DNA from: Desulfuromonadales bacterium
Lineage (GTDB): Bacteria > Desulfobacterota > Desulfuromonadia > Geobacterales > Pseudopelobacteraceae
Assembly: GCA_016650295.1 (NCBI GenBank)
Contig: JAENWA010000063.1
Location: 1-64,000, forward strand
Direction of reading: 5' to 3'
DNA: 64,000 nt
Part shown: piece after piece, positions 4,391-46,100 of the stretch
Layout: each line of letters begins with the position of its first letter
Numbering within the stretch: the first letter of the stretch is position 1
Made by a program: the position numbers and the translations under genes
Notes under the pieces: generated by a model
What the model was told of the DNA's origin: nothing
Databases searched by the model: none
Seen by the model: the letters and a program-made list of their open reading frames with translations, nothing else

Positions 4391-4421
4391 GAAAAAAGGC
4401 GGCTAAAAGCCGCCCTTTCTC
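4391..4421 (-). terminator. rho-independent terminator downstream of IclR gene
   Basis: GGGCGGCttttaGCCGCC TTTTTTC on minus strand. Confidence 0.65.
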
Positions 4422-4442
4422 ATAACAATGTCAGGTTGTACG

Positions 4443-5914: not shown

Positions 5915-5925
5915 TCATATTACTA

Positions 5926-6117: not shown

Positions 6118-6168
6118 TATACCCGCTCCTGAACAATCAAACATTCCTCCAATAGCCACGAATCCCAC

Positions 6169-6200
6169 ACCGGCACTCTGAATATAGAGTGCCGGTTTTG
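6169..6200 (+). terminator. rho-independent terminator
   Basis: ACCGGCACTCT-gaatat-AGAGTGCCGGTTTTG, perfect 11-bp stem. Confidence 0.8.
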
Positions 6201-6547
6201 TCATTTGGCGGTTTTACGTGTTTACACGTAATTTTATTTAACTCAAAAATTCATAGAACATAATTTGGAATTATTATTTCAAGCCGGTTAACCCAGTAAA
6301 ACAGAAGAATTGCGTTCTGCTCGATCTTTGTCGTTGGATAAATCGGCATTTTTGTTGCATATAGAAAATCATATACATTAATATTTGACTACTAAAATTG
6401 TAAAATATATCGTAAATTGCATATAATTTTTAATAGGTTGCCGGTCATGTAAGGAGGTGATTAGGGAAAATCGGCCCGGTTATTTGGCGGAACAATGGGA
6501 GTGCGCTGTACGTGGTGCATCAAATCAAATGAATCGCGGAGGAAACA

Positions 6548-8191
6548 ATGAAAAAGACGGTATTAAAGCTGGTTCTAACCGCACTGGTTGCGGGGATGTC
6601 CCTGCCCCTGTCGGCGCAGGCTGCTGATGATGCTCTGATGAAAAAAATCGAGCAGATGTCGCGGGAGCTGGATGAGTTGAGAAACCAGGTCAAGATGAAC
6701 GAAGAAAAGGCTGCCAGATCGGCTGAAGAGCAAAAGAATGCGGCAACTAAGAGTGATGCAAAAGAAATTGAGGGACTGAAAAACAAGGTCGCCAAGATTG
6801 AAGAAAAATCAATCGGCAGATGGTTGACCATTGGTGGAGATTATCGCTTCAGGATGGACTCGCTGCATGGTCGGACTGCTGCGTACACGGATGCCCCGAC
6901 CCTGAGTGGTCTTATGCCTCAAGTATTGGCAGGAACTTTGCCATTTCAGGCCGCTATGGCTGCTGCTGCTCGTCAGGCCGATAAGCCCAAGAACGAAACC
7001 CTTTACACCAACAAGTTCGGTCTCGACCTGCATGCCAAGGCTCTTCAGGACGTGACTGTTAACGTCAAACTGGACATGTACAAGACTTTTGGCTCCCAAA
7101 GCGACAATGCCACGACTGGCAACTATTTTGCTGATCGCATCGGCGTGATGGACGGTACCATCGGTCATGTTCCATCCGACGGCCTGCTGAATGTTGATCG
7201 TGCCTATGCAACCTGGAGTAATATCCTGGATCAGCCGGTCTGGTTTTCGGTTGGTCGACGACCTTCCACCAATGGCGCTCCCAGTAATCTCAAGCTGAAT
7301 AATGAGCGTCCCGGAAATGGTGGAACTCCTTCACTGCTGGTTGATTATGCCTTTGACGGTATGACCCTCGGTTATGCCCCTGACATTGATATATTGCCCG
7401 GCGCCTATGCCAAGGTCTGCTACGGTCGAGGTTTTGACAGTGGCTTCAAGACAGTCAATAACAGCATCAAGGACACGGACATGCTTGGGGTTGCTGTCAT
7501 ACCGTACGAGACCGACCCGCTGCGAGTATGGCTGCAGTGGAACCGCGGTTTCAACATTTTCGATTCATCAGTCATGAAAGATACCGTTTTCGGCAATACC
7601 AATGTTTCCACCAATCTTGGCAGTATCGATTGGTACGGTGCCGGCGCCATGAGTACACTTAAAAAAGTTGGACCCGGCAACCTGAATATCTTTGCGGACT
7701 TCGGTCTGAGCGTTACCCATCCCAACACGAATACTTCAAACGGACTTGGTCTCATGAGTGGCACATTCGATGCGTTATTCGCTGGTACTCCTGAACCAAA
7801 TACCAGCAAGACCGGTTGGGGTGTATACGCAGGTGTTCGTTATGACCTCCCCTCAAAAACTAAAATCGGTTTCGAATTCAATCATGGTTCGAAGGACTGG
7901 ATCCCCTTTACGCCTGCAGCAGATGACATGTGGACCAGTAAAGTCGGTGCGCGTGGAAATGTGTATGAGCCGTACATTATTCAGGAACTTAACCTCAAGC
8001 CCCTATCCAGCTATTTTGCCAAGGCGTTTTTCAAGCTTGGCTACCAGTACTACGATTTCGAGTACACCGGCAGCAACAACTGGGTCGGTTCTCCGGTGAA
8101 GATCTCTTCCATACAGCCGTCAACAATTCTAATGCTGGCGCCTGTGAAATCCGCCCATGATATTTATGGCACTTTCGAAGTGAAGTTCTAA
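6548..8191 (+). CDS. extI: outer-membrane porin, DUF3373/ExtI-like (selenite/tellurite-locus porin)
   Basis: signal peptide, coiled-coil N-terminus, beta-barrel C-terminus ending in F (GTFEVKF); adjacent to ExtJ/ExtH-like genes. Confidence 0.65.
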   Translation: MKKTVLKLVLTALVAGMSLPLSAQAADDALMKKIEQMSRELDELRNQVKMNEEKAARSAEEQKNAATKSDAKEIEGLKNKVAKIEEKSIGRWLTIGGDYRFRMDSLHGRTAAYTDAPTLSGLMPQVLAGTLPFQAAMAAAARQADKPKNETLYTNKFGLDLHAKALQDVTVNVKLDMYKTFGSQSDNATTGNYFADRIGVMDGTIGHVPSDGLLNVDRAYATWSNILDQPVWFSVGRRPSTNGAPSNLKLNNERPGNGGTPSLLVDYAFDGMTLGYAPDIDILPGAYAKVCYGRGFDSGFKTVNNSIKDTDMLGVAVIPYETDPLRVWLQWNRGFNIFDSSVMKDTVFGNTNVSTNLGSIDWYGAGAMSTLKKVGPGNLNIFADFGLSVTHPNTNTSNGLGLMSGTFDALFAGTPEPNTSKTGWGVYAGVRYDLPSKTKIGFEFNHGSKDWIPFTPAADDMWTSKVGARGNVYEPYIIQELNLKPLSSYFAKAFFKLGYQYYDFEYTGSNNWVGSPVKISSIQPSTILMLAPVKSAHDIYGTFEVKF

Positions 8192-8312
8192 CGTCAATTC
8201 TGTAAACCGGGCGGTGTTGCTTCGCCCGATTTACAGATCCGATTAAACTATGTAACAACGGATTGTATCTAATAAAAAGTATTGTAACCATAGATTGGAT
8301 AAGGAGTTGAAA

Positions 8313-8636
8313 ATGAAAAAAATACTATCGGTTGTTGTAATGGTCGCCCTGATGCTGGTTTCGGTACTTACCTTTTCACGCCAGGCACAGGCTGAAGAAT
8401 TGAAGATGGTGGGCACCATTTCCAAAATCGAGCTGTCTGCCGATAAAAAGTCCGCCACCGCAATCCTGAAGGATTCAAAAAGCGGCGAAGAAGTCACGAT
8501 ACTGGTCAGTGACGAACTGACGCTGGATAAATTCATGGACAAACGTATTGTTGAAGGCGATGAAATCAGGTGTAAATTTGAAAAAATGGACGGCAAGAAC
8601 AGCAGCAAGATGTTCAAGAAAACAGCCGGCTGCTGA
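8313..8636 (+). CDS. extJ: small periplasmic protein, ExtJ-like
   Basis: signal peptide then ~80 aa beta-rich domain ending ...FKKTAGC; position between porin and rhodanese. Confidence 0.5.
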   Translation: MKKILSVVVMVALMLVSVLTFSRQAQAEELKMVGTISKIELSADKKSATAILKDSKSGEEVTILVSDELTLDKFMDKRIVEGDEIRCKFEKMDGKNSSKMFKKTAGC

Positions 8637-8660
8637 TTTCCTTTGGGAGGGACACACAGT

Positions 8661-10070
8661 ATGAGTTATGAAAACAAACATCCTGTTGTACTGGCGCTGG
8701 CGGTCGGAATCTGGATCTCTGCTGCTGTTGCCTTCGCTGCAGAGCCTGGCGCTCCGGCAGCAAAGCCGACCATTGCAAAAATCTGCACCACCTGTCACAA
8801 GGCTGAAACGGGCGCTGTTCGCGGCTATTTTGATGGCGTGTCGTTCAAGGTCAAAACCATCCAGGTGAAGATCGATGATGCCACTGAGTTGATTACGTTT
8901 GATGAAGACGATATTAAGGTAATAAACGGCGCCGGCAAGACCGGTGACGGTGAGTTTTTGAAAGACAACCTGATTAAAAGAGGGCATGAAATCAAGGTTG
9001 AATACACGGAGAAGAACGGTGTCAAGACGGCTGTCAGGTTGATTGAAAAACCGCCGGTCAAGGTGTCGGAAGAGCTGATGATAAAAACAGCGGATATTGA
9101 AAAACTTGTCGCCCAGGGCCCGGAAAAGAGGAAATATTATCTCTTCGATACGCGCCCGCTGCCGCGCTTCCAGGAAGGATCTATCCCCACGGCCGTCAAC
9201 CTTCCTTACCCTGCATTCGACAAACTGGCTGAAATGTTGCTGCCGAAGGACAAGAGCGCCCTGGTTATTTTCTACTGCGCCGGTCCAACCTGCAGTATGA
9301 GCCCCGGTTCTGCCGCCAAAGCACAAAAAATGGGCTATACCAACCTGAAGGTCTACAAGGACGGCATGCCGGGATGGCTGGACAAGAACTACGGCATTAT
9401 CTCAACCCAGTTCCTGAAAGAGGCCTGGATTGATAAAGATATCCCTCATGTTCTGCTTGATGCTCGTGCCTCAAAAGAGGCCGGCAAAGGATTTATCAAG
9501 GGTGCTGTCGCTTTTCCTGGCAAACAGGTTGCCAAGCTTGTCAAAGGTCTTGACGTCAAGAAAAACGCCCCGATCATGGTGTATGACCAGAAGGGTGGCA
9601 AGGATGCCAGAGCCGTTGCATCGGCCCTGGTCAAGGCCGGATTCAAAAAGGTGCTGGTGCTGACCGGCGGTTTAGAAGCCTGGCAGGCAGCCAACTATGA
9701 AGTTGCCGGCGGCAAGCTGACCGCAAAAGCGAGCTATGTACCCAAACCACGTCCGGGCGAGATTAATCCGGACGAGTTCAAGAAATTTGCAGCAGAACTT
9801 CCGGCCAACGTCATGATCATCGATGTTCGCAGCACACACGAAGGTCATGCCGGCATGCTCAAGACCGCCAAGCTGATCCCGGCCGAAGAAATCAAAGACC
9901 GTCTGACTGAAATACCCAAGGACAAGTTGGTCGTGCTCTACTGTAATACCGGTGTCATAGCCGAGGTGTCCTATCACACCCTCAGGGAACTGGGGTACAC
10001 CAATGTCAAATTTGTCGATGCCAAGACAGTATTCGAAAAAAACGGCAGCTACACAATTTCAAAGGATTGA
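8661..10070 (+). CDS. extH: multi-rhodanese protein with one c-heme motif, ExtH-like
   Basis: CTTCH near N-terminus; rhodanese-like repeats with FYCAGPTC, VYDQKGGKDA and LYCNTGVIAE active-site loops. Confidence 0.65.
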   Translation: MSYENKHPVVLALAVGIWISAAVAFAAEPGAPAAKPTIAKICTTCHKAETGAVRGYFDGVSFKVKTIQVKIDDATELITFDEDDIKVINGAGKTGDGEFLKDNLIKRGHEIKVEYTEKNGVKTAVRLIEKPPVKVSEELMIKTADIEKLVAQGPEKRKYYLFDTRPLPRFQEGSIPTAVNLPYPAFDKLAEMLLPKDKSALVIFYCAGPTCSMSPGSAAKAQKMGYTNLKVYKDGMPGWLDKNYGIISTQFLKEAWIDKDIPHVLLDARASKEAGKGFIKGAVAFPGKQVAKLVKGLDVKKNAPIMVYDQKGGKDARAVASALVKAGFKKVLVLTGGLEAWQAANYEVAGGKLTAKASYVPKPRPGEINPDEFKKFAAELPANVMIIDVRSTHEGHAGMLKTAKLIPAEEIKDRLTEIPKDKLVVLYCNTGVIAEVSYHTLRELGYTNVKFVDAKTVFEKNGSYTISKD

Positions 10071-10258
10071 CTTTGTAATACATTCAATCTCGACCAGCTG
10101 GCTGGAATTGCACGCCTGATTTACTCAAGCACTTGGAGTCTTTTTATTTATCAGAAAACATTCATAAATGTATATACATGGAAATAGCGCTGTATTGGCC
10201 TGGCATTAGTTACTAAAAGTTTTCAATAAATATGTCTGAGATTGAAAGGAAATGAAAC

Positions 10259-11626
10259 ATGTCCGGAAAGATAACAGTGATCATGCTGGGATGCGCCTTG
10301 CTGGCAGCAACTGTTCAGGCCAAGGAGCATCCGGGAAAAGAGCAGATACTCAAGGAGGGCTATCAGGGACCAAAAACTTGTGAAACATGCCATCCCGGCA
10401 AGGCCAGGGAGTTTTTGGGAACGGTGCATTGGAAGCATGCCTCAAAGGTTGATCACGTCGATAACATTGACCCCAACGAAGAGTACGGCATGAAAAACCG
10501 TATCTATACGATGTGCAACGGTAGCGATATCGTCAACAACCTCAAGGAAGTGCCGCCGAACGCGCTCGGCAAGACCAAGTTTACCGGCTGCAATACCTGC
10601 CACCCGGGCGATCATAGCAGCGATGTCGGCAGTACCGGTCCCCAGGCGGAACAGGCGATAGATTGCCTGATATGCCATTCTTTCAAGTATGACTTCAGCA
10701 AGAGAAAAGCGGTCAAGAGTGAAGACGGCAAGGTTGTGATGACCCAGGATCGCAGCACCGAGGCAGCAGCCAACATCGGCCGGCCGACCATCAAGAATTG
10801 TATGGCCTGTCACGAGGCCGCCGGCGGCGGAGCCATGATCAAGCGTGGATTTTCCATGGCCCAGAAGGACGAGGTTCACGTAACCAAGGGCATCATCTGC
10901 GTAGACTGTCATCAGGTGAAAAACCACAGATTTCCCACCGGTCGCGATCCCAACAACTGGGCTAATGACGGTATCTATATGACCTGTGTCGGTGAATGCC
11001 ACAGCGTCACACCGCATAAGGATGCCGATTACAACAGGCATATCGCAAAGATTGCCTGCCAGACCTGCCATATCCCGAAGACCGGCGGCGCTTTCTCCAA
11101 AGACTTCACCAAGTGGGAGAAGCAATCCAACGGTTTTTACGAGCCTTCCACCTTGAAGCGCGAGGTGAATGAAACTGCACCCGTGTACGCCTGGTACAAC
11201 CTGACGGTCAGTAATACTCCGCACTTTATAGGTCCCAAGGGGAGCAGAACGGATGGAAAAAGCAAGATTTACCCGTTCAAGATTTTCCAGGGTAAAGCCT
11301 ATTTCAACAAGAAGGACGGCAAGTTGCTGTCAATGGATTTCGCGTCGCCGATTGCAACCGGAGATACTCTGGCGGGTGTCGCCTCTGCCGCCAGGATTCT
11401 CGGTATCAAGGAGTATGAACCGGTTCCGGGATGGCAGACAATCTACTTTGGAAGCAACCACCAGGTTGCACCCAAAAACAAGGCGTTGAGCTGTGCCAAC
11501 TGTCATGCGCTCAATGGCGTGCTTAATTTTAAAGAGCTGGGGTACAGCCCGAAGGAAGTTGAGAAGCTTACCAACCCTGAACTTTATTTTGAAAAGCTGC
11601 TCAAGCTGCAGCAGGAGAACGAATAG
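10259..11626 (+). CDS. octaheme c-type cytochrome, octaheme tetrathionate reductase (OTR)-like
   Basis: CETCH, CNTCH, CLICH, CMACH, CVDCH, CVGECH (CX3CH), CQTCH, CANCH; CMACHEAAGGGAMIKRG resembles OTR-family motif. Confidence 0.7.
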   Translation: MSGKITVIMLGCALLAATVQAKEHPGKEQILKEGYQGPKTCETCHPGKAREFLGTVHWKHASKVDHVDNIDPNEEYGMKNRIYTMCNGSDIVNNLKEVPPNALGKTKFTGCNTCHPGDHSSDVGSTGPQAEQAIDCLICHSFKYDFSKRKAVKSEDGKVVMTQDRSTEAAANIGRPTIKNCMACHEAAGGGAMIKRGFSMAQKDEVHVTKGIICVDCHQVKNHRFPTGRDPNNWANDGIYMTCVGECHSVTPHKDADYNRHIAKIACQTCHIPKTGGAFSKDFTKWEKQSNGFYEPSTLKREVNETAPVYAWYNLTVSNTPHFIGPKGSRTDGKSKIYPFKIFQGKAYFNKKDGKLLSMDFASPIATGDTLAGVASAARILGIKEYEPVPGWQTIYFGSNHQVAPKNKALSCANCHALNGVLNFKELGYSPKEVEKLTNPELYFEKLLKLQQENE

Positions 11627-11695
11627 TTTTCTGACTTCTCGTGAAGGGGCATGATTGTTTCACGCCCCAGGTTCTTTGCAACTCATTATTTCATC

Positions 11696-11795
11696 GTAGG
11701 TTGGGTTAGCTGCCTCATCGCGTAACCCAACAGCTTTGAATGTTGCCAGCTTGGTTATGTTGGGTTACGGCATACACCCGCCTAACCCAACCTAC
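11696..11795. repeat. MITE-like palindromic element
   Basis: terminal inverted repeats gtaggttgggtta / taacccaacctac with internal cgtaacccaac / gttgggttacg. Confidence 0.75.
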
Positions 11796-11863
11796 AAAAG
11801 CAACGAAAGAAATCCTTATCACAGATATCTTCTAACATCCCGGTCTTCCATAGGAGGTAAATC

Positions 11864-14062
11864 GTGTCGCCAAAATTCTCTCGAAGAACTTTTTTCAAGG
11901 TTTCAGGTGCAGCCACAGCGGGTTTGACCGTAGCTGCTACATTACCTAAAAAGTTCCTCTCCTGGGCCGAAGAGGCCGGCCAGAAAGATATGAAGCAGAT
12001 CCCCACCTTCTGCGAGCTCTGTTTCTGGAACTGCGGCTTGATCGCCAAGGTGGAAAACAACAAGGTCGTCAAGGTCGATGGAAACCCGCTCAGCCTGCGC
12101 GGCCGCGGTCGTCTCTGCGGCCGTGGCAATGCAGCACTGGGGGCGCTGTACGACCCGGACCGCCTCAAGTATCCGATGATCAATACCGGCAAGCGCGGGG
12201 AACCTGTCTGGAAGCGGGCCAGCTGGGATGAGGCACTGGGACTGATTGCAGAAAAGATGAATGTCATCAAGCAAAAGTACGGTGCGGAGTCCATGGCGCT
12301 GTTTTCGCATGGAACCGGTGGAGCTTTCTGGAAGCACCTGCTCAAGGCCTATGGCTGCAGCAACTATACCGCGCCCTCGTTTGCCCAGTGTCGCGGTCCT
12401 CGTGATATGGGGTTTTACCTGACCTACGGTTCGGATGTCGGTTCGCCTGAATACTATGATTTCAGCAAAAGCAAATACATAGTCCTGCTCGGCTCGCACC
12501 TGGGAGAGAATGCCCATAACAGCCAGGTGCAGGACATCATGAGCGGCCTGGCCGATGGCGCACGGTTGACAGTGGTAGATCCGCGCCTCTCCAATATTGC
12601 CTCCAAGGCCGACCACTGGCTGCCGATCAAGCCGGCCAGCGATCTGGCGCTGCTTCTGGCCTGGATCAGGATCATCATTGAGGAGGGGTTGTACGACAAG
12701 GAGTATATCGCGAAATACGCCTCCGGATTCGACGAACTGCGGGCAGCTGTGCAGCAGTATACCCCGGAGTGGGCCGAGTCCGAGACAACCATCGCGAGTG
12801 ATACCATCGTCAAGGTGGCCCGCGAGATGGGCAGGAATTCCCCGCATGTCTGTGTCGGCGCCGGTCGCTACGCCGTCTGGTATGGTGACGATACCCAGCG
12901 CAGCCGGGCCATTGCCATACTCAATGCCCTGCTCGGTTCCTGGGGGCGCGAAGGCGGTTATTTCTTTCCAGCCAAGGGTGGTGTGCCCGAATATCCCGGA
13001 CTGCCGGACTACCCGCCCCACGAAGAGGTACCCAAGCTGGATGACGCCTATCCGTTTGCCGCACTGCAGACGACGACCTCCATCAAGCAGGCCTCCATCA
13101 GCGGTAAGCCGCACCCGATCAAGGGGTGGTTCATCTACGGCTGCAACCTGATGAAGACCATGCCGGACAAGCAAGAGACCATCAAGGCCCTGCAGAACCT
13201 TGACCTGGTGGTCGCCATTGATGTACTGCCGGCCGAAATCATCGCTTGGGCTGATATCGTCCTGCCGGAGTGTACCTACATGGAGCGCTACGATAATATC
13301 AACGTGGGCAAATTCAAGGATCTGGAGATATCCCTGCGTCAGCCGACGGTTGAACCGCTCTGGGAGTCCAGGCCGTCCTGGTGGATGACCAGGGAACTGG
13401 GTAACAAGCTTGGCCTGGCGGCCTACTTTCCCTGGAAGGATGGCGAGGAGTACCTGGCCAAACGCTGCGAGTCGGGTGGCATTGACTTTGCCGAACTCAA
13501 GAAAAAGGGTGTCCTTGTCAAGACCGACACGTCGTCCCCCTACATCACCGCCGATAGCCAACCCGAGTTCGGGACCCCTTCCGGCAAGATCGAGCTGTAT
13601 TCAAAGCAGCTGGAGGAGAAGGGTTTTGATCCCGTGCCAAAATACACCCGCCATCCCCAGCCGCCGGCCGGCTACTTCCGCCTGCTGTTCGGGCGGTCGT
13701 CCCTGCATACCTTCTCCCGGACCACCAACAACTTCATGTTGACCGACCTGCAGAAGGAAAACGCGCTCTGGATGAATGCAAAAAAAGGGAAAGAACTGGG
13801 ACTGACAAACGGGGAATATGTCTCGCTGATCAACCAGGACGGGGTCGCGGCGCCCGGCCGGATCAAGGTCAAGCTGACCCAGCGTATGCGCGATGATGCC
13901 GTCTACATGTACCACGGCTTCGGCGTTCATGCCAAAGGGATGACCCGCGCCAATAACCAGGGGATAGCCGATGATGACCTGATCTCGAAATATGTCATTG
14001 ACCCGATCATGGGCGGCACCGCCATGCGCGGAAATTTTGTCAAGATTGTGAAGGGGGCCTGA
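11864..14062 (+). CDS. molybdopterin-dependent oxidoreductase catalytic subunit (Psr/Phs/Srr-like CISM, TAT-exported)
   Basis: GTG start, SRRTFFKVSG twin-arginine motif, CELCFWNCG + CGRGN 4Fe-4S motif, molybdopterin-binding C-terminus. Confidence 0.9.
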   Translation: MSPKFSRRTFFKVSGAATAGLTVAATLPKKFLSWAEEAGQKDMKQIPTFCELCFWNCGLIAKVENNKVVKVDGNPLSLRGRGRLCGRGNAALGALYDPDRLKYPMINTGKRGEPVWKRASWDEALGLIAEKMNVIKQKYGAESMALFSHGTGGAFWKHLLKAYGCSNYTAPSFAQCRGPRDMGFYLTYGSDVGSPEYYDFSKSKYIVLLGSHLGENAHNSQVQDIMSGLADGARLTVVDPRLSNIASKADHWLPIKPASDLALLLAWIRIIIEEGLYDKEYIAKYASGFDELRAAVQQYTPEWAESETTIASDTIVKVAREMGRNSPHVCVGAGRYAVWYGDDTQRSRAIAILNALLGSWGREGGYFFPAKGGVPEYPGLPDYPPHEEVPKLDDAYPFAALQTTTSIKQASISGKPHPIKGWFIYGCNLMKTMPDKQETIKALQNLDLVVAIDVLPAEIIAWADIVLPECTYMERYDNINVGKFKDLEISLRQPTVEPLWESRPSWWMTRELGNKLGLAAYFPWKDGEEYLAKRCESGGIDFAELKKKGVLVKTDTSSPYITADSQPEFGTPSGKIELYSKQLEEKGFDPVPKYTRHPQPPAGYFRLLFGRSSLHTFSRTTNNFMLTDLQKENALWMNAKKGKELGLTNGEYVSLINQDGVAAPGRIKVKLTQRMRDDAVYMYHGFGVHAKGMTRANNQGIADDDLISKYVIDPIMGGTAMRGNFVKIVKGA

Positions 14063-35669: not shown

Positions 35670-35735
35670 GGTGAGTCCCTTATTGTGATGTTAACCGGAA
35701 TTGCGGTATGTTGGTGAATCGAGCCGTATGTCACA

Positions 35736-36866
35736 TCAGTTGATAAACTCCAAATAATTCTCACGGTTAACTACCTGCCAGGTCGCATCCGGATAGGCTC
35801 CGCTCCACTCCTTTGGCGGTCGGGGTCTGGCTTTGCCCCATTTCATTTCATAGCCATGCAGTGTGCTGCCTCGCTCTTCAATCAGATCCAGCTCTTTTTG
35901 GGTATAGGTGCGCCAAAAAAAGTTATTGGCCGGCTCTCTTAGATATTCCTGGCGTTTCATCCGCTCAATGATCAGGTAATTTTCCCAGAGTTCTCCTGCG
36001 TCGTTACGCAGATCAAGCGGATTGAAGTTATTGATCAAGGCGTTGCGCACGCCGTTATCGACAAAGTAAAAGCGGCTGTTCTTGGTGACCTCGTTTCTCA
36101 GGTTACGGCTGAATCCACCCAGTTTCTGAATAACAAAGGCCTTTTCCAACAGATCAAGATAGTGATCTACCGTGTTCTTGCTCATCCCCAAGGCTGTACC
36201 CAGCTCGGTATAGGAGACCTCCTTGCCGATCTGAAAGGCCAATAGCTGGAGCAGTTTGCCGATCTTGGCTGAATGCCTGATCCCCTCCAGTTCCAGGATG
36301 TCTTTATAGAGATACGACGAAACAATCTCTTTCAGGTACTGCTCCCGTTCCCGATTATCCTGCAGCAGCACTACTTCGGGGTAGGAACCGAACAAAAGGC
36401 GCATCTCCAGACGCGCCTCGGTTTCGTGGCGTTGTTCCGCGGCGCCGATCTCCATCTGGGCAAGAGGGTACTGAATCAGGGTGGTTTTTCGACCGGTGAG
36501 CGGCTCGCCGATGCTGCGGGCAAGATCAAAAGAGGATGAACCGGTTGCAATTATGCGGATATCCGGGATGTGATCAACGATCAGCTTTAGGTTCAAGCCG
36601 ATGTTATGGATTTTCTGGGCCTCGTCAATCACCAATAGACGGTTGTTACCGACAAAGGCCTTCAGCTTGTCGATCGACTGGCTGGAAAGATAGCTTTGAA
36701 TGGTAATGTCTTCACCACTAACCAAAAGATACGGCTCGGCTTCTCCCTTTAAAAACTCATGGATAAGGGTCGTTTTTCCGGTACGCCTGGCGCCATATAT
36801 TACGACTACTTTTCCCGGTTTCAGCGCAGATTGAAGGTTATCGAGCTGCCTCTGCTTGATGTACAT
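35736..36866 (-). CDS. AAA ATPase (DUF4143-type ATP-binding protein)
   Basis: VVIYGARRTGKTTLIHEFL Walker A; LLVIDEAQKI Walker B. Confidence 0.85.
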   Translation of the reverse strand: MYIKQRQLDNLQSALKPGKVVVIYGARRTGKTTLIHEFLKGEAEPYLLVSGEDITIQSYLSSQSIDKLKAFVGNNRLLVIDEAQKIHNIGLNLKLIVDHIPDIRIIATGSSSFDLARSIGEPLTGRKTTLIQYPLAQMEIGAAEQRHETEARLEMRLLFGSYPEVVLLQDNREREQYLKEIVSSYLYKDILELEGIRHSAKIGKLLQLLAFQIGKEVSYTELGTALGMSKNTVDHYLDLLEKAFVIQKLGGFSRNLRNEVTKNSRFYFVDNGVRNALINNFNPLDLRNDAGELWENYLIIERMKRQEYLREPANNFFWRTYTQKELDLIEERGSTLHGYEMKWGKARPRPPKEWSGAYPDATWQVVNRENYLEFIN

Positions 36867-37089
36867 TTTATATAACTCCGTCAGTCAATTGACCGAATTA
36901 TATATTATTTGGTCATAAGTGCAATGCTGTTGTTAATAAAAACGTAACTATTCTGCGATTAACGGGGCTTGGGTTCACCGGTGCCGCGTCTTTTGCGGCA
37001 ACCGAGTGAAACCCATGGTTGGCATTTCCAATTTTCCACTTTCAACTGACCACGTCGAAATCGTCCTGTGAAACTGTTTGACAAGACAT

Positions 37090-39450
37090 CTAAGTGCACC
37101 CCAGTTCAGGGATCAGTGCATCATGTATTTTATATCGGTTGCTCCCCAATTTTCGTGCAAGCGCCTTATTTTTCTTATTGTTCTCTAAACTGTAATCAAA
37201 TAAGAACTCGTCTTGTTTGGTCTCTCTTCCTAGAATCGAAAGAGCAACAAGGTGATCAATAAAATGTTCAATGTCAGATTCATTTTCAAATATTATTTGA
37301 GCAGACCTAGCTCGGCTGATGATTTCATCCTTGCCTATGACTACGTGTTCACCCACCAATTCATATAGGAAGTCCTCCATTTGTTTAATGGATACGCCAT
37401 TTTCAACAATTAATGATGAAAATACCCATTCCGAGTATTGCTTGTGTGCTTCAGCTACGTCTGACTCTAAAAAGCTTGCGTGGCCTCTTAATACAGCAAT
37501 TTCTTTCATTTTTATAAAATAGAATATTATGTCTCTTGGCCTCGGGATAATTCGCTTATATATATAATCTTTTATATCCTCTCCATAAACAACTTTTGGA
37601 AGATATGTGTCCCATAATTCACTAGGTATTATGTCATTGTTAAGCTTGCTAAATCTCTCTTCAATAATCCTAAATAGAGTTTCCTTGTCATCGACAATAA
37701 GCTTAGAATATTCGATTTTATCTGGTTCTCTAGCATAAAGCATAACATGTCTAAAAATGTCACTGCGTAGGAAGATTGTTAAATGACATCTAATTCCAGG
37801 ACCAGTGTTGTTTGAGGAGAAATCTCTGATTATCCTACCAGTAACCCCAAGAAGACTCAGTAACCATCTGCACTGAAATTCAATACTATTATTGTCTTTC
37901 CAAGATTTATCCAAGTTATCTATCAATATGTAAATATTCTTCCCCTTAGGAAATATTTTAAAAATTTGTTTCTTGATTTCACCAAGTACATTCTGATGTA
38001 ACAATTCCGAAACTCTTATTTTAAAATCTGACTCTTTAGTTGCAGATGTTGCAGAGGTTGAAATAATTTCTGTTAGTTTCTCAACTATTCTTGAGTGTAA
38101 ATCAGCTAAAAAAATCTCATCATTATTTTCGATAAATTGAATATATTCTTGTTCCGGATTAGTTATTGAATAACTAGGTAGTCTCTGAAAACCTTCATAG
38201 ATAGATCTTGCAATTTCAGTATAAATTAATAATTTCCACACACTTTCTATTAGATAGGTCTTCTCAAATTCTTTAGGCACATTTTTCATGACATCAATAA
38301 GCCCTTCCAACTCATAGCTTATGGGCTTTATAGTGCAAACAAAGTTGGCTTTATTACTTTCAAGTTCACCCTTTAGATAATACATCGTTGCAGTTTTACC
38401 ACATCCTTTACGACCAACAACAATATTGTATTCACTTTTTATTAGTGAGGATGAGGACATTGTCTCGACATAATATCGTGTAATATTTTCACCTTCATGT
38501 TCTGCCAGAAACTCTCCAAAATCCAGCCGTTGAATCAACTTTTTATTATGTTGTAAGTTACTGTATTGATTTTTTTTCAGCTTTAACTGAAAATATTCAT
38601 TCTTAAAATCTTGAAGAAACGGATTAATCTTTGCTATGCAATCCTTGGAATTTGAATACTTCGCAAGTAGTTCACGATAGTCCAAAGGGCTGTAGTATGG
38701 TTCTTCACAGACCATCAATACTTTCAAGCCCATTCCGACTGCAATTCCTGAAATAGTAGCACACTTTGAGTTTTGAATTTCATAACCGGTTCTTGCAATT
38801 GTAGAAAGCTCCGCTATCACTGCCGGTAATTTTATCAAGCGTGTTAAATACCAAACAAGGTTATTTACTTTATTTTCAATTGCGTCATCTAAACAAAAGG
38901 ATAGTTTTAAATTTGTTATCGCATTTTGAATCGCTAAGTTGTAGTTGGTGTCTACCTGATTCTTTAAAAAAAGGAGAGGCTGATCAAAGTCAGTAATATT
39001 TGCTCGTTCAAGAAGTGAATCTAATGCTCCTCCTTTGTCGTAAGGCTGATTTTTGTAGAATGCTGTCACTATTTGTTGTGAATTTGTATAATTGTCATAG
39101 CCGATAGACGAAAAGAAACCTAATTCTCTATTCCGCCTCACAGAGTCTGTGTGTGATGTGTCTAGCAGCAACCAAATCGGTTTATTTTTACCAATTGCAT
39201 AACCGAGTTCAAACAGTACGTTGTCATTTATGCCTGTCAGATCTGCACAGAAGAAATCAGAATCATCTATTTGTTTCAATATTTCGTTAATTATCATCAC
39301 GCCGTTAACATTGAGCAATTGCCAAGACATTAAATTGACTAGCCCAGACTTATTGATTTCCGTTATGGCGGACTCAATTGCATCCGAGCATGACGATGGT
39401 TGTGAGCTATATGCAAAGAATCCCTTTTTCATAAACCCTCCTATTTTCAC
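37090..39450 (-). CDS. P-loop ATPase (Sll1717-like) with N-terminal nucleoside deoxyribosyltransferase/TIR-like domains
   Basis: DDSDFFCADLTGINDNVLFELGYAIGKNKPIWLLLD; GRKGCGKTATMYYL Walker A; NIYILIDNLDKSW Walker B. Confidence 0.75.
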   Translation of the reverse strand: MKIGGFMKKGFFAYSSQPSSCSDAIESAITEINKSGLVNLMSWQLLNVNGVMIINEILKQIDDSDFFCADLTGINDNVLFELGYAIGKNKPIWLLLDTSHTDSVRRNRELGFFSSIGYDNYTNSQQIVTAFYKNQPYDKGGALDSLLERANITDFDQPLLFLKNQVDTNYNLAIQNAITNLKLSFCLDDAIENKVNNLVWYLTRLIKLPAVIAELSTIARTGYEIQNSKCATISGIAVGMGLKVLMVCEEPYYSPLDYRELLAKYSNSKDCIAKINPFLQDFKNEYFQLKLKKNQYSNLQHNKKLIQRLDFGEFLAEHEGENITRYYVETMSSSSLIKSEYNIVVGRKGCGKTATMYYLKGELESNKANFVCTIKPISYELEGLIDVMKNVPKEFEKTYLIESVWKLLIYTEIARSIYEGFQRLPSYSITNPEQEYIQFIENNDEIFLADLHSRIVEKLTEIISTSATSATKESDFKIRVSELLHQNVLGEIKKQIFKIFPKGKNIYILIDNLDKSWKDNNSIEFQCRWLLSLLGVTGRIIRDFSSNNTGPGIRCHLTIFLRSDIFRHVMLYAREPDKIEYSKLIVDDKETLFRIIEERFSKLNNDIIPSELWDTYLPKVVYGEDIKDYIYKRIIPRPRDIIFYFIKMKEIAVLRGHASFLESDVAEAHKQYSEWVFSSLIVENGVSIKQMEDFLYELVGEHVVIGKDEIISRARSAQIIFENESDIEHFIDHLVALSILGRETKQDEFLFDYSLENNKKNKALARKLGSNRYKIHDALIPELGCT

Positions 39451-39537
39451 ATGTCTTCAGTGATATTTATCTTGCAATCCTGGCCAACGGGGTCGGCCTT
39501 GAGCTGCCGGTTTTTCAGGGCAGGTCCAAGAACGTGG

Positions 39538-40239
39538 TTATACATTCGCTTCTATAGCTTTTTGGGATTCCTCGATTTCGCGCTTTTTTCTATTGGCATC
39601 ATCGAAGGAGCGTACTTGTTGTATTACATCATGAGAGTGAGAAACATCTTGAGCAATAGACAATCCAGGCAAGGAGTCACCATGAGCACGGTTTGCCCTG
39701 TATGCGGTCATTACTCCGACAATTTGAACCCCATCAGTGGCAGTGTTATAGATAACAGGCCCCCCACTGACTCCATTGATTGCTACACCGTCAATCAAAT
39801 AGGACTTCAAATCGTCTCGTCTAGCACTGACGTTCCCTGCGAAGAAGCACAAGGTATACGGCTCGATAGCAGGGAACCCAAGCCATCCAACTTCAGCACC
39901 AATATTAATTCTGGTGTCTATGGGGCGGAGTGGTATCAAACTATCTGGCAGCTCAAGCTCGCTGCTTTTAATAAAAATCATCGCTGAATCGGTTTTGTAT
40001 TCTGTGAAAATTACTCTTTGGTCCACAGGTAAGAAAGCTGTTTTTGAAAAGTTATGGTTATGAATTTTTATCGGCTGTTGCCATTCATCAGCATTAGAAA
40101 CTACATGTAGAGCAGTAGCGATTCCACACCATGAATAATCATCATTGTAGGCACAAAGAAAACCAGTCCCGCTACAAGATGGAGTTTCGATTTTTACGAT
40201 GTAAGGAGTGACTTTTTGAACAACTTGATCCCAATTCAT
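39538..40239 (-). CDS. trypsin-like serine protease domain protein
   Basis: GTGFLCAYNDD..GIATALHVV (His), KTDSAMI (Asp), INGVSGGPVI (Ser). Confidence 0.8.
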   Translation of the reverse strand: MNWDQVVQKVTPYIVKIETPSCSGTGFLCAYNDDYSWCGIATALHVVSNADEWQQPIKIHNHNFSKTAFLPVDQRVIFTEYKTDSAMIFIKSSELELPDSLIPLRPIDTRINIGAEVGWLGFPAIEPYTLCFFAGNVSARRDDLKSYLIDGVAINGVSGGPVIYNTATDGVQIVGVMTAYRANRAHGDSLPGLSIAQDVSHSHDVIQQVRSFDDANRKKREIEESQKAIEANV

Positions 40240-40259
40240 TTTAATTCTCCTATTGATGA

Positions 40260-40757
40260 CTATATGGTGCGGCCCACTGTACCTTTTGGATACAACGCCA
40301 ATTTGTAAAGATGTTGAGCAAGTCCACGTATGCCCAACTTATTTAATGTAATGGCAATTTGGGCTGTGCTCACTGAAATTAGCTTTATTAAGGGTCTTCC
40401 CTTATTGTAATCAACACTTTTTGACAGCTGGTATTGAATTACAGATAGACTGTGCAAACGCTCAGATTGCTCTTTCATATCTGGAATAAGCTCTGACAAA
40501 GTTTCAAACCAAGTTTCCCATAATTTACTCCAATGCTCTGATTCTTCTTTTGCTGTGAGGTGGGGGGACTCGGAAGGGGAAAACATCCATTCTGATTCCC
40601 ATATGCCAACTTGGTTTGATGCAAACTTAACAAGCTCGTTCAACTCTGTAACAGATATATTGTCTGGCCTTCCGTCAAGCAAGCAACTGACATCCTTAAT
40701 GGGAACTCCGACACTACTTGTTTTTTGGGATTGCAAATATTGCAAAAGATCGCTCAT
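40260..40757 (-). CDS. hypothetical protein (candidate conflict-system component)
   Basis: 165 aa ORF, tightly packed upstream of the protease gene. Confidence 0.6.
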   Translation of the reverse strand: MSDLLQYLQSQKTSSVGVPIKDVSCLLDGRPDNISVTELNELVKFASNQVGIWESEWMFSPSESPHLTAKEESEHWSKLWETWFETLSELIPDMKEQSERLHSLSVIQYQLSKSVDYNKGRPLIKLISVSTAQIAITLNKLGIRGLAQHLYKLALYPKGTVGRTI

Positions 40758-40844
40758 TTATTCGCCTCCTTTTCTTGGGGGTATAACGGTGTGGGAGATC
40801 ACCTGACGGCTTTTGGGTCAGGTGCATCTTCCTTGTTGTACGGT

Positions 40845-41357
40845 TCAGTCGAACTCCATCTCATCTTTAATTTGGCCCAGTTCCGTAAGCAGGTCCTCAA
40901 ATGGGTTGTTTTCTATGTCATTCAGAAAGAACTCCGTTAGAGCTTGACGTGTCAGCTCTTTTACCCGATCCCGGCTTTCGGATTTACAGCTAAGGGTGTA
41001 ACTGTCGATGCCGTTTTTCAGTTCTGTTGCGTAGGATTTTACTGCATCTACGTAGGTCTCGATTGACTGCTCCTTTTTCTTCTTTTGCAGATATATCTCA
41101 GCCTCGTCAAAGCGCCCAATCAGTCCGAATTTATCGATTCGTTTTGCCATTTTTATACATCTTAGGGCGTCGTTATTACGGCCAAGAGCCATCAATGCTC
41201 TAGCCTTAAAAATCAAAGCTTCTCTGTAATAAGGATATTTGTCGAGAAAGGCATCGATATGCGGCAAGGTTTCAACAAAGCTCCCGGAATCTATGAACTT
41301 TCCGTACAGAACTTTCATTTCGCTTGAAATATTCGGAATGTCAGTAATCCGCTTCAT
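40845..41357 (-). CDS. TPR-repeat-like protein
   Basis: PYYREALIFKARALMALGRNNDALRCIKMAKRIDKFGLIGRFDEAEIYLQKKK. Confidence 0.65.
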   Translation of the reverse strand: MKRITDIPNISSEMKVLYGKFIDSGSFVETLPHIDAFLDKYPYYREALIFKARALMALGRNNDALRCIKMAKRIDKFGLIGRFDEAEIYLQKKKKEQSIETYVDAVKSYATELKNGIDSYTLSCKSESRDRVKELTRQALTEFFLNDIENNPFEDLLTELGQIKDEMEFD

Positions 41358-41665
41358 TTATTAGCCTTTTTAATCGTACAACTCGTTGTTGAGCAGCCCC
41401 GCGCGCGTGAACCGGTGATCTTCCCAATTTGGATATTTAGGCTGTGAACATGAAAATAACAAAATGGTTCCGCACTATACGACAGTACTTGTGCCATGTC
41501 AAAGCTGAATCAGCGTGCTTAACTTATCAGTAACTCGACAAAAAGCCGTTGCATTCCCCGCCAGGTAGTTTATTACCCGGTTGACTTCAACAGCGGCAAT
41601 CCGGCTGTGATCCCCGGTGCCATTCTGTTGCTCTCCCCCCTTTCAACCTCTCCAATGCCCCCAAA

Positions 41666-41697
41666 ACCTCAATTTCCGAACGTTCGGAAATTGAGGT
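41666..41697. repeat. 32-bp perfect palindrome
   Basis: ACCTCAATTTCCGAAC|GTTCGGAAATTGAGGT. Confidence 0.9.
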
Positions 41698-41911
41698 AAC
41701 TGACTGAAATACAATAACTCACATCGAAAAACCGGCCAAATATTATTTCGGTGGTTTTGCGGGCACAACAGTCCAACTATCTGTTTTAAATAGATTAATA
41801 TGGTTTGTGGGGGCGTAACGTTGGGTGCATACGGGGGTGATTCGGCAACAACTGACGGGAAAACTGCAGATGTGAACGTAGTGTCACGTGACGCCGGAGC
41901 GTCTGTGGCTG

Positions 41912-41938
41912 CGTTCCCACGCCGGAGCGTGGGAACGA
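41912..41938. repeat. hairpin repeat cgttcccacgc-cgga-gcgtgggaacg
   Basis: perfect 11-bp stem. Confidence 0.8.
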
Positions 41939-41960
41939 TAGGAAAGTACCCTCTGGGCAT

Positions 41961-42075
41961 AAAGGGGAGGCTAGTGGGGGATGGGTTTCCTTCGACTCCG
42001 CTCAGGGAACGGTTGGTAAGCGAAGTCGGATCTACCCCATCCCCACCCCGACCCTCCCCTTGAAGGGGAGGGAGA
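41961..42075. repeat. GC-rich palindromic element (family shared with 44239-44353)
   Basis: tctaccccatccccaccccgaccctccccttgaaRgggagggaga shared nearly identically. Confidence 0.8.
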
Positions 42076-42077
42076 AC

Positions 42078-43407: not shown

Positions 43408-45363
43408 TTAGCTTCCCCCTTTGCAAAGGGGGGGATTAATAATACATTCCCGCCAGCCGCGTACCGAGTTGACCATCCAAACGGTGTCGGCGGTCAGCAG
43501 GTCTTCCAGCGTCAAGAGCGCTTCGCGCATGGCGCCGACCTCCAACAGTTCTTCCCGCAGAACACCCGGCAACAGGCCGCACTCCAGCGCTGGTGTCAGC
43601 AACTCTCCCGCTTTTGCGACAACAAGCGAGTTGAAACACCCTTCCGTCAGCTCGCCCCTCTCATTCAGAAAGATGACATCGTAACAATCGGGATGCTCGC
43701 GAAGCTCTCGGTCGTACAGTTCGCGTCGGGTTGTCTTGTGGTACAGGAACGGATCATCGGAATTCATCCTCTTTCGTGAGACAGTAACCAGGCAGGGAGC
43801 GGCCGGGGCATGCTGCTGCAAGGTCTGGCTGTCGATAGATATGTTTCCGTCTTCGGCCAGCAGAACCCGGACCTTGTGCGGGCCGATCAACGGTTCCCCC
43901 GCATCCATAAGCCGTCCGCGCAGGCTCTTTCCATCAAAGGCAAACCCGAAGTAAGCAGCCGACGAAGCCATCCGCCGCAGGTGGCGCTCCAGCAGCAGAT
44001 AGCCCTGTTCGTCATAGCGAAGGGATTCGATCAGGCTGAACTGGTCGGCCGATCTGGTCAGAAAGGCGCTCTTGGCCAGGCACTCCCGGTATTCGCTCCC
44101 GGCATCCGAATCCCAGGTGATGCCGCTGCCGATACCGAGCTCCGCGTTTCCCGTGGCCGTTTCCACGACCGCCGTGCGGATGGCGACGGAAAACACCGCC
44201 TCTATGCCAGATAAGTGCCCAAAGTTTGTGTCTTTCATCCCTCCCCTTTCAAGGGGGAGGTTAGGAGGGGGATGGGGTTTGTTTTGGCAAGCCATTGAAG
44301 TCGTACAATCTACCCCATCCCCACCCCGACCCTCCCCTTGAAAGGGAGGGAGATTTTTATTATTTTGGGGTGATACATAGCCGATGGCGCCGCAGTAGAC
44401 CCTGCGCGGCGAGGTTTCCAGGCCTTTGATAATCTCCATGGTGCGCTGCTTGGGCGCGCCGGTGACCGAACCGCACGGGAACAGGGCCCGGAAGATGCCG
44501 GTCAAACCCACCTCCGGCCGGACCCGTGCCGTGACGGTCGAGGTCAGCTGGTGAACTGTCGGGAAGGTCTCCACGTCGAACAGGGACAGCACCTTGACAC
44601 TGCCGGTCTCAGCGATGGTGGAAAGGTCGTTGCGAACCAGGTCAACGATCATCAGGTTCTCGGCCCGCTCCTTGGCGCTGGCGGTCAGCAGCTCGCGTTG
44701 ACGCCGGTCATCGTCGGCTCGCGGCAGCCTGGCTGCGGTGCCTTTCATCGGCCTCATCGTCAGAAGGTCATCGTCGAGGGAGAAAAACAGCTCCGGTGAG
44801 GCCGAGAGAATCCGGTGTGTGCCGATATCCAGCCAGGCACAGAAGGGCGCCCGCTGATTGCGGCACATCCTGCGGTAGAGCACGAAAGGATCGCCCGTGA
44901 TACGGAAACGCTGGCGGGTCGTAAAGTTGACCTGATAGGTCTCGCCCCGTGCGATGGCCTCGCGGATAGCGCCCACCGCGCTCCGGTAGGCGGCCTCGTC
45001 AATGGCCAGTTCGGGCGGCGAAACCAGGCAGTCACCGGAACTGCCGGAGGTTGTTTGGCCGGTACAATCCAGCCGTTCGGAAAAGATGCCGAACCAGACC
45101 AGTGGCAGCGAGTCCTTCCCGGAAACCGGCAGATCCGGATTCAGCCCGGAAGCGGCCTCGTAGGCCACGTAACCGGCGGCGTGCTTTCCGAGTGCGACGG
45201 CCTGTTCAACCTCTGCCAGGGCCGGTACCACCTGTTCGGGCGAGTGTGCGGTTATGACGGACTCACACCCGCTGAAACGGTAGGAACGGGAGTTTGCGCC
45301 GCCGCCGAACGACTCCAGCAGCACGTCCGGCTGATGCGGCTCTGTCTGTCGTTGCCTGATCAC
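43408..45363 (-). CDS. pabB: aminodeoxychorismate synthase component I / 4-amino-4-deoxychorismate lyase fusion
   Basis: chorismate-binding motifs (YQVNFTTRQRF, MKGTAARLPRADDDRRQRELL, GSVTGAPKQRTMEIIK) plus PabC-like domain; GTG start overlapping cobS stop. Confidence 0.85.
   Translation of the reverse strand: MIRQRQTEPHQPDVLLESFGGGANSRSYRFSGCESVITAHSPEQVVPALAEVEQAVALGKHAAGYVAYEAASGLNPDLPVSGKDSLPLVWFGIFSERLDCTGQTTSGSSGDCLVSPPELAIDEAAYRSAVGAIREAIARGETYQVNFTTRQRFRITGDPFVLYRRMCRNQRAPFCAWLDIGTHRILSASPELFFSLDDDLLTMRPMKGTAARLPRADDDRRQRELLTASAKERAENLMIVDLVRNDLSTIAETGSVKVLSLFDVETFPTVHQLTSTVTARVRPEVGLTGIFRALFPCGSVTGAPKQRTMEIIKGLETSPRRVYCGAIGYVSPQNNKNLPPFQGEGRGGDGVDCTTSMACQNKPHPPPNLPLERGGMKDTNFGHLSGIEAVFSVAIRTAVVETATGNAELGIGSGITWDSDAGSEYRECLAKSAFLTRSADQFSLIESLRYDEQGYLLLERHLRRMASSAAYFGFAFDGKSLRGRLMDAGEPLIGPHKVRVLLAEDGNISIDSQTLQQHAPAAPCLVTVSRKRMNSDDPFLYHKTTRRELYDRELREHPDCYDVIFLNERGELTEGCFNSLVVAKAGELLTPALECGLLPGVLREELLEVGAMREALLTLEDLLTADTVWMVNSVRGWRECIINPPLCKGGS
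44239..44353. repeat. palindromic element inserted in-frame in pabBC
   Basis: inverted arms ccctcccctttcaagggggagg.../...cctccccttgaaagggaggga; translated as LPPFQGEGRGG...PNLPLERGG. Confidence 0.85.
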
Positions 45364-46100
45364 TGCGGATACCCGCCGGACAAAACGATCAAGGCGACTA
45401 TCTCGGCGATTTCGTTGATGCAGCCGATGATGTCGCCGGTCAGGCCGCCCAGGCGGTTCTGAAAATAGCCCTTGATAACCAGTGTGACGGCAAAGACGGC
45501 CACCAGGGCGATCATGCCCTTGACCGGCAAGGCCAGCAGGCAGGCCGCCAGGGTTATTCCCAGCGCGACGAGCAGGTGTCTGGCGGCCATGCCCTGGATG
45601 ATGGCTGCGCCGAGACCGTCCTGGCGGGCATGTTTCGCCCCACCCAGCGCCAGCACTTGGGCCGAGCGTCCCAGAATGGGAAAGAGCAGCAGCGCCTGCC
45701 AGGTGATTCCGGCCGGAACCGCCGCCAGGGCCTGCCATTTCAGCAGAATCCCCAGCACAACCGCCACCGCCCCCGCAGCTCCCACGTGGGAATCCTTCAT
45801 GATTGCCAGAAAACGCTCCCGGCTGCCCCGCGCCGCCAGGCCGTCGCAGACATCGGCCAGACCGTCCAGGTGAAGGGCGCCGGACACGACCGCCAGGGCA
45901 GTGATCAGCAGGGCCGCGGTCAGTGAGCGGTTCAGCCAGGGCTCGATCAGCCAGTTCAGCCCGACCAGCAGCCCGCCGACCGTCAGCCCGACCAGCGGAA
46001 AGCAGGCCGTGGCCCGCCCCAGATCCTCCTTCTGACAGCGAGTGTCACAGGGGAGCGGGATGATGGTCAGGAATTGCAGGGCGATCAGGTAGAGGCGCAT
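45360..46100 (-). CDS. cobS: adenosylcobinamide-GDP ribazoletransferase
   Basis: ALQFLTIIPLP, GALHLDGLADVCDGLAARGSRERFLAIMKDSHVGAAGA. Confidence 0.95.
   Translation of the reverse strand: MRLYLIALQFLTIIPLPCDTRCQKEDLGRATACFPLVGLTVGGLLVGLNWLIEPWLNRSLTAALLITALAVVSGALHLDGLADVCDGLAARGSRERFLAIMKDSHVGAAGAVAVVLGILLKWQALAAVPAGITWQALLLFPILGRSAQVLALGGAKHARQDGLGAAIIQGMAARHLLVALGITLAACLLALPVKGMIALVAVFAVTLVIKGYFQNRLGGLTGDIIGCINEIAEIVALIVLSGGYPQ

What the first reader, a model, noticed from the sequence alone, without database searches (positions are those of the whole stretch)
37090..41357. Candidate undescribed conflict/defense operon: TPR + unknown + trypsin-like protease + P-loop ATPase with TIR/deoxyribosyltransferase-like N-terminus
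Four same-strand genes with short gaps in a visibly AT-rich segment amid GC-rich core genes. The 786 aa protein has a nucleoside deoxyribosyltransferase/TIR-like motif (DFFCADLTGINDNVLFELGYAIG), a second related-looking segment (CATISGIAVGMGLKVLMVCEEPYYSPLDYRELL), Walker A and Walker B. The neighbour has an intact-looking His/Asp/Ser triad. ATPase sensors paired with proteases and nucleotide-processing domains are hallmarks of prokaryotic immune systems.
Basis: partly seen in the sequence, partly recalled or inferred. Interest (0 to 1): 0.75.

Follow-up and report, generated by a model that had tools for sequence, protein, structure and literature searches.

The report
Integron cassettes mistaken for defence operon
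Four neighbouring genes that looked like one bacterial immune operon are really three separate captured gene cassettes of an integron (a bacterial gene-collecting element), and only the largest is a strong immunity candidate: a stand-alone protein, found patchily across many phyla, that joins a nucleotide-cutting domain to an ATP-driven switch.

Summary
The four genes and their motifs are real, but "operon" is the wrong unit. Each of three segments ends in an integron recombination site (attC): [TPR] | [165-aa protein + trypsin-like protease] | [780-aa ATPase]. An attC covariance model trained on other contigs and genomes gives only four hits in the 64-kb window. Three fall right after these three units, on the coding strand (E 1.9e-7, 0.0036, 2.6e-4). 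It gives none in 0.96 Mb of control DNA. No integron integrase was found on this contig, so this is a CALIN (integrase-less cassette array). A sister species has only 133 bp where this genome has a 6.4-kb insert. Among 80 relatives of the ATPase in many phyla, none has the TPR, 165-aa or protease gene nearby; relatives of the TPR and protease genes also stand alone. The ATPase is the interesting part: an NDT/DNPH1/TIR-like domain (catalytic Glu invariant in 54 homologues), a degenerate second copy, an ORC/CDC6-STAND-like P-loop ATPase (NCBIfam Sll1717 family) and a winged helix. A nucleotide- or NAD-hydrolysing abortive-infection switch is the best inference, but defence is unproven: neighbours are mostly housekeeping genes, and PADLOC has no matching system.

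The parts
36963..39487 (-). Cassette 3 (about 2.5 kb): single-gene NDT-like/Sll1717 ATPase cassette, bounded by the cleavage points of attC2 and attC3
   Evidence: attC model hits at both ends; G^TT convention for attC cleavage is established knowledge
37090..39432 (-). 780-aa protein: NDT/DNPH1/TIR-like domain with catalytic Glu (about 1-130), degenerate second copy (about 150-260), P-loop ATPase of the Sll1717 family (about 305-660), winged helix (about 680-780)
   Evidence: NF047389 260 bits, cut-off 75; AlphaFold pLDDT 85 whole and 94 N-terminus; 54-sequence alignment
39202..39222 (-). NVLFELG motif, residues 71-77; Glu75 is the predicted catalytic residue
   Evidence: N71, E75 and G77 invariant in 54 homologues
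38392..38415 (-). Walker A, GRKGCGKT, residues 340-347
   Evidence: G340, G343, G345, K346 invariant
37909..37920 (-). Walker B-like DNLD, residues 505-508
   Evidence: D505, N506, D508 invariant
36957..37024 (-). attC3, after the ATPase gene
   Evidence: covariance model E 2.6e-4 in 64 kb; bottom-strand DNA fold z -3.8
39488..40786 (-). Cassette 2 (about 1.3 kb): 165-aa protein and trypsin-like protease
   Evidence: bounded by attC1 and attC2
39538..40239 (-). 233-aa trypsin-like serine protease (LHVV / KTDSA / GVSGGP)
   Evidence: Trypsin_2 E 2.9e-6; PADLOC LmuA E 1.9e-13
40260..40757 (-). 165-aa protein with no relative found
   Evidence: no plasmid match, no match in 195 class or 396 phylum genomes other than its own
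39482..39543 (-). attC2, after the protease gene (R'' overlaps the stop codon; weaker stem)
   Evidence: covariance model E 0.0036; fold z -1.1; aligned to an attC after the protease relative in G118
40787..41381 (-). Cassette 1 (about 0.6 kb): TPR protein; the 5' boundary GTTGTAC at 41382-41376 is inferred
   Evidence: attC1 at the 3' end; no model-supported site at the 5' end
40845..41357 (-). 170-aa TPR protein
   Evidence: TPR_19 E 1.4e-5; 65% identical relative alone in G020
40781..40841 (-). attC1, after the TPR gene
   Evidence: covariance model E 1.9e-7; fold z -4.0; near-identical to an attC in an intI-linked array of G085, L070:9276-9336
41474..41502 (-). Promoter-like site TTGACA-17-TATAGT facing the array (possible Pc)
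   Evidence: 11 of 12 consensus matches, but site counts in the region do not exceed shuffles
35680..42077 (.). Insert relative to sister genome G001, where the same flanking genes lie 133 bp apart

Best explanation
The region is a small integrase-less integron cassette array (CALIN) with three independently captured cassettes; the genes are neighbours because an integron integrase stacked them, not because they form one system. This part rests on the sequence. Inferred: cassette 3 is a self-contained conflict gene. Its N-terminal NDT/DNPH1/TIR-like domain would hydrolyse a nucleotide (NAD+ or a deoxynucleotide). The degenerate second copy would be a regulatory or ligand-binding partner. The ORC/CDC6-STAND-like ATPase with its winged helix would hold the enzyme off, then oligomerise and switch it on when it senses phage or plasmid DNA or protein, shutting the cell down (abortive infection). 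The protease and TPR cassettes are separate accessory genes of unknown role. My confidence is about 0.93 in the cassette array and about 0.5 in the immune-switch mechanism; the number given is for the whole statement.
For: attC model trained off-window: three of four window hits fall directly after the three units, same strand, and 0 hits in 958,629 control bases. attC1 is almost identical to an attC in an intI-linked array of another genome. The host genome carries intI-like genes and at least 20 attC matches, many near contig ends; intI above cut-off occurs in 61 of 147 relatives. Empty site in G001. Relatives of the ATPase, protease and TPR genes stand alone. For the mechanism: invariant NVLFELG Glu, Walker A and DNLD residues; N-terminal model matches DNPH1 at TM up to 0.72 and SARM1 TIR at 0.57, normalised by target; ATPase model matches ORC2/CDC6, the archaeal ATPase sso1545 and plant resistosomes; 24 of 54 homologues hit the PADLOC TIR-effector profile and 39 of 54 hit the DS41_1 anti-phage profile, best 2.9e-21. 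NDT-related TIR-like NADases (DUF4062) act in bacterial immunity (PMC13174449), and Retron-Eco1 is counted among NAD+-depletion systems (PMC12774641).
Against: attC2 is a weaker site. No attI was found and no intI lies on this contig. No attC accompanies the other 80 relatives, so the gene usually travels by other means. A 2.5-kb cassette is long; the review PMC12409362 notes that integron-borne defence genes tend to be small. Neighbours of relatives are mostly housekeeping, with few PADLOC hits. The substrate and the trigger are not shown by anything here.
Confidence: 0.6

Rival explanations
1. One four-gene defence operon: TPR and 165-aa proteins sense or scaffold, the ATPase/TIR-like protein and the protease are linked effectors.
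For: Same strand, short gaps, shared low GC; proteases and TIR-like/STAND proteins do occur in known immune systems.
Against: attC sites separate three units; no co-occurrence near 80 relatives; relatives of the protease and TPR genes are elsewhere and alone.
Confidence: 0.04
2. The array reading holds, but the 780-aa protein is a nucleotide-metabolism or sanitation enzyme (DNPH1-like clean-up of odd deoxynucleotides) regulated by an ATPase, not an immune protein.
For: The best solved relatives of the N-terminal domain by sequence profile and fold are DNPH1/Rcl and nucleoside deoxyribosyltransferases; neighbours of relatives are mostly housekeeping.
Against: Very patchy distribution at 30-50% identity across phyla, presence on plasmids and fusion to a STAND/ORC-like ATPase suit conflict genes better than metabolism.
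Confidence: 0.17
3. The array reading holds, but the ATPase cassette acts against plasmids or other mobile DNA (incompatibility or exclusion) rather than phage, using its ORC/CDC6-like ATPase and winged helix to recognise DNA.
For: ORC/CDC6/TnsC-like fold and C-terminal winged helix; homologues sit on plasmids.
Against: No direct evidence; ORC-like folds also occur in protein-sensing STAND proteins.
Confidence: 0.15
4. The attC-like palindromes are chance hairpins or terminators, and the segment is an ordinary genomic island.
For: attC2 folds weakly; no attI or intI beside it.
Against: Model hits are rare (four in 64 kb; none in 0.96 Mb of control DNA) and fall right after the three units on the coding strand; attC1 is nearly identical to an attC in an intI-linked array elsewhere.
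Confidence: 0.04

Closest known systems
CALIN / sedentary chromosomal integron arrays as libraries of anti-phage genes (Darracq 2025, Getz 2025, Kieffer 2025, as cited in PMC12444791 and PMC12409362)
   Same: Genes each followed by attC, same orientation, unrelated functions, many of unknown role
   Different: Not a Vibrio array (the host looks like a Geobacter/Desulfuromonadales relative by gene content; not named by the tools); no intI on the contig; one cassette is unusually long (2.5 kb)
NCBIfam NF047389, P-loop ATPase, Sll1717 family
   Same: Whole ATPase module, 260 bits against a cut-off of 75; all 54 homologues match
   Different: The family model covers only the ATPase; the tandem NDT-like N-terminus is not part of it and no function is assigned
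NCBIfam NF053860, DS41_1 anti-phage protein
   Same: Distantly related ATPase region, 39 of 54 homologues at E<=0.001
   Different: Far below its cut-off (25.6 against 370 bits)
DNPH1/Rcl and nucleoside 2-deoxyribosyltransferases
   Same: Fold and F/YELG catalytic motif of the first domain
   Different: Fused to a second degenerate copy and an ATPase; about 15% identity
TIR-like NADase defence proteins (Swarozyc/DUF4062, PMC13174449; CBASS TIR effectors)
   Same: NDT/TIR-like domain; PADLOC TIR effector profile weakly matched
   Different: Different family and architecture; NADase activity not tested here
Lamassu LmuA protease effector
   Same: The cassette 2 protease matches the LmuA profile, E 1.9e-13
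   Different: No LmuB SMC-like ATPase among the proteins scanned; the protease is stand-alone in relatives

Membership tests
CALIN / integron cassette array | At least two attC sites | tested here: met
   Three sites at 40781-40841, 39482-39543, 36957-37024
CALIN / integron cassette array | attC after each cassette gene, coding strand, R''/R' boxes and bottom-strand hairpin | tested here: met
   Positions and strand; fold z -4.0 and -3.8 for attC1 and attC3, only -1.1 for attC2
CALIN / integron cassette array | No integron integrase beside the array | tested here: met
   intI-like matches in the genome lie on other contigs, none on C63
CALIN / integron cassette array | Sites recombine with an IntI | not testable with these tools
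   Needs an excision assay
Complete integron | intI with attI and Pc beside the cassettes | tested here: not met
   No intI on the contig; no attI identified; promoter-like site at 41502-41474 only
Sll1717 P-loop ATPase (NF047389) | Score above curated cut-off | tested here: met
   260.5 bits, cut-off 75
DS41_1 anti-phage protein (NF053860) | Score above curated cut-off | tested here: not met
   25.6 bits, cut-off 370
Nucleoside deoxyribosyltransferase (Pfam PF05014) | Score above Pfam gathering cut-off | tested here: not met
   25.7 bits, cut-off 28.8; 35 of 54 homologues match at E<=0.001
NDT/DNPH1/TIR-like superfamily (by fold) | Catalytic Glu motif in a Rossmann-like fold | tested here: met
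   E75 invariant in 54; TM up to 0.72 to DNPH1
STAND NTPases | P-loop ATPase core of the STAND/ORC group with winged helix | tested here: met
   Foldseek to ORC2/CDC6, sso1545 and plant NLRs; winged helix by secondary structure of the model. STAND versus ORC/CDC6 clade not resolved
STAND NTPases | C-terminal superstructure-forming repeats as sensor | tested here: not met
   Protein ends with the winged helix
Lamassu | LmuB SMC-like ATPase beside LmuA | tested here: not met
   Of the five proteins scanned (35736-41357), only an E 0.0025 LmuB match in the DUF4143 protein
Any anti-phage system | Protection against phage | not testable with these tools
   Needs phage challenge

The most novel reading that the evidence does not exclude
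The NDT - degenerate NDT - ORC/STAND ATPase - winged helix protein is an undescribed, widespread single-gene immune switch, a compact bacterial analogue of TIR-NLR receptors without a repeat sensor, here caught as an unusually long integron cassette.
Probability: 0.42. Interest if true: 0.68.

Novelty: new variant of a known kind. Interest (0 to 1): 0.5.

Why it matters
It corrects a tempting reading: in cassette arrays, closeness on one strand is not evidence of a shared pathway, so guilt by association misleads. It also isolates one testable candidate, a single-gene NDT/STAND-like protein with 257 relatives found in species-level genomes and no assigned function.

Tried and rejected
A first genome-contig scan with the single protein found nothing; the scan with an eight-sequence alignment worked. 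Viral-contig scans failed twice on the server side. An ad hoc attC scanner with strict settings missed the window sites; a version allowing bulges found attC1 and attC3. The automatic RNAalifold structure gave no pairs, so model R1 was not used; the structure was supplied by hand for R2. The segment upstream of the TPR gene (41399-41462) was considered as attI and rejected: it is an interspersed repeat of the genus. An attC after the TPR relative in G020 was suspected by eye but not supported by the model. Membership in Lamassu, DS41_1 and a complete integron was rejected (membership table). DS41 could not be traced in the paper library.
Full report
Observation. The four minus-strand ORFs are present in a segment of 33-46% GC, while the core genes on both sides are at about 60% GC or more. 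Homologues fix the start of the large gene at the ATG at 39432, giving 780 aa. Pfam gives Nuc_deoxyrib_tr (E 1.4e-5, slightly below cut-off), Trypsin_2 and TPR. NCBIfam gives the Sll1717 P-loop ATPase family at 260 bits. PADLOC gives only a weak TIR-effector match for the ATPase and an LmuA-like match for the protease. The 165-aa protein has no informative match.

Why it is not an operon. A protease relative in a same-order genome (G118) shares the spacer after the gene as well as the gene (77% DNA identity over the gene end and spacer), but is followed by a different gene. That spacer has the anatomy of an attC recombination site. I collected 31 attC sites from other contigs and genomes, mostly beside integron integrases, using R-box and palindrome criteria. 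The hand-supplied structure pairs in 74% of cells with a covariation score of 0.30; shuffles average 0.15 and none of 500 reaches it. Because the sites were picked partly for their palindromes, that score describes the training set and is not independent proof. The covariance model built from them contains no window sequence. In 64 kb it gives four hits at E<=10. Three are 40781-40841, 39482-39543 and 36957-37024, all on the minus strand, directly after the TPR gene, the protease gene and the ATPase gene. The fourth, 145-213, is at the contig start. A search without filters confirms the three as the only good hits in the segment. The same model finds nothing in 958,629 bases around 80 relatives of the ATPase. 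attC1 and attC3 fold well as bottom strands (z -4.0 and -3.8); attC2 is weak (z -1.1). attC1 is almost the same as a site in an integrase-linked array of G085.

Host context. The genome has intI-like genes on contigs C10, C103 and C106, at least two of them broken by a frameshift or stops, and none on the window's contig. It has at least 20 attC matches, many near contig ends, as expected when assemblies break in cassette arrays (noted for draft genomes in PMC9024848). intI above cut-off is present in 61 of 147 relatives. In the sister species G001 the methyltransferase gene and thiC, which flank this region, lie 133 bp apart, so about 6.4 kb (35680-42077) was gained here or lost there. That insert also holds an AAA/DUF4143 gene (35736-36866). 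IntegronFinder 2.0 calls clusters of at least two attC without an integrase a CALIN (PMC9024848). This locus fits.

No shared system. Full-length relatives of the ATPase on plasmids of Leptospira, Leptolyngbya, Bacillus and Alphaproteobacteria are single genes in unrelated surroundings; a Rhodococcus copy is broken by a stop codon. A wider scan found 257 relatives in species-level genomes. Of the best 80 loci, none encodes a relative of the TPR, 165-aa or protease protein by tblastn at E 0.1. Some of these loci are short contigs, so the test is not complete for all of them. Protease relatives and the TPR relative lie elsewhere and alone. The 165-aa protein was found nowhere else.

The ATPase. 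Fifty-four aligned homologues keep N71, E75 and G77 of NVLFELG, the Walker A glycines and Lys346, D505-N506-x-D508 and R631-P632-R633 invariant. AlphaFold gives pLDDT 85 for the whole protein and 94 for the N-terminal 292 residues: two Rossmann-like domains, a P-loop ATPase and a winged helix. The first domain is nearest DNPH1 (TM up to 0.72 normalised by target) and then SARM1 TIR (0.57); Foldseek E-values for this domain are weak (best about 1e-3), but sequence profiles agree. At the matching place the second domain has G-rich text (CATISGIAVGMG) without the Glu and is probably not catalytic (inference from the alignment). The ATPase matches ORC2/CDC6, sso1545 and plant resistosomes. Pfam ORC-CDC6-like matches 18 of 54 and NCBIfam DS41_1 anti-phage 39 of 54, best 2.9e-21, but the window protein is far below the DS41_1 cut-off.

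Function. The most likely reading is a single-protein switch: the ATPase senses, oligomerises and activates nucleotide or NAD+ hydrolysis, stopping growth. Shown: architecture, invariant catalytic-type residues, patchy spread, cassette location. Inferred: substrate, trigger, defence role. Supporting analogies are TIR-like DUF4062 NADases in bacterial immunity (PMC13174449) and Retron-Eco1 NAD+ depletion (PMC12774641). Integron cassettes are a rich source of anti-phage genes; at least 16 of 179 V. cholerae cassettes were active (PMC12409362). Against it, the neighbours of relatives were mostly housekeeping: among 123 neighbouring proteins, only 15 PADLOC families were hit at E<=1e-15, each by one protein. 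No matched control set was run.

Limits. The attC E-values are rough because calibration was shortened, and the model is tuned to this order, so divergent attC sites elsewhere could be missed. The 5' boundary of cassette 1 is inferred from a GTTGTAC core alone.

Noticed in passing
window 145-213 (-): A fourth attC match (E 1.9e-4) near the start of the contig, suggesting the contig broke inside another cassette array.
   Followed up: partly
L037 (G000:C10), 2262-13061: A chromosomal integron of the same genome: a long integrase gene split by a frameshift (11660-12517, 12501-13061) and cassettes with attC at 8996-9067, 7402-7471 and a weaker site at 4432-4486; one cassette encodes another trypsin/HtrA-like protein (9132-10481).
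   Followed up: partly
window 35736-36866 (-): AAA_14/DUF4143 ATPase, 508 bits to the PADLOC candidate family PDC-S01, lies in the same 6.4-kb insert but has no attC after it.
   Followed up: partly
window 41399-41462: REP-like interspersed repeat (GATCACCGGTTCACGCGCGCG) shared with several places in same-genus genomes and with L082.
   Followed up: partly
window 42025-42077: Stretch just after thiC (CCCTCCCCTTGAAGGGGAGGG and neighbours) matches many places in G003 at 85-100%: another dispersed repeat.
   Followed up: no
window 43408-45738 (-): Aminodeoxychorismate synthase-like ORF appears to carry an in-frame copy of a dispersed repeat (PPFQGEGRGGDGVD...NLPLERGG).
   Followed up: no
L041 12346-13617: In G118 the protease relative lacks its N-terminal half; a REP-type (Y1) transposase gene abuts the break.
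   Followed up: partly
L008 4912-12390: On a Rhodococcus plasmid the ATPase relative (one internal stop) lies between a TIR-domain gene and a DUF4062 gene, both of defence-type families.
   Followed up: no
L001 1342-2883 (G000:C111): The same genome has a second Sll1717-family ATPase (302.8 bits) without the NDT-like N-terminus.
   Followed up: partly
L184 9186-9234: Short R-box pair (GTATAAC...GTTACGC) after the TPR relative in G020 looks attC-like by eye but scores only 1.5-3.9 bits.
   Followed up: yes
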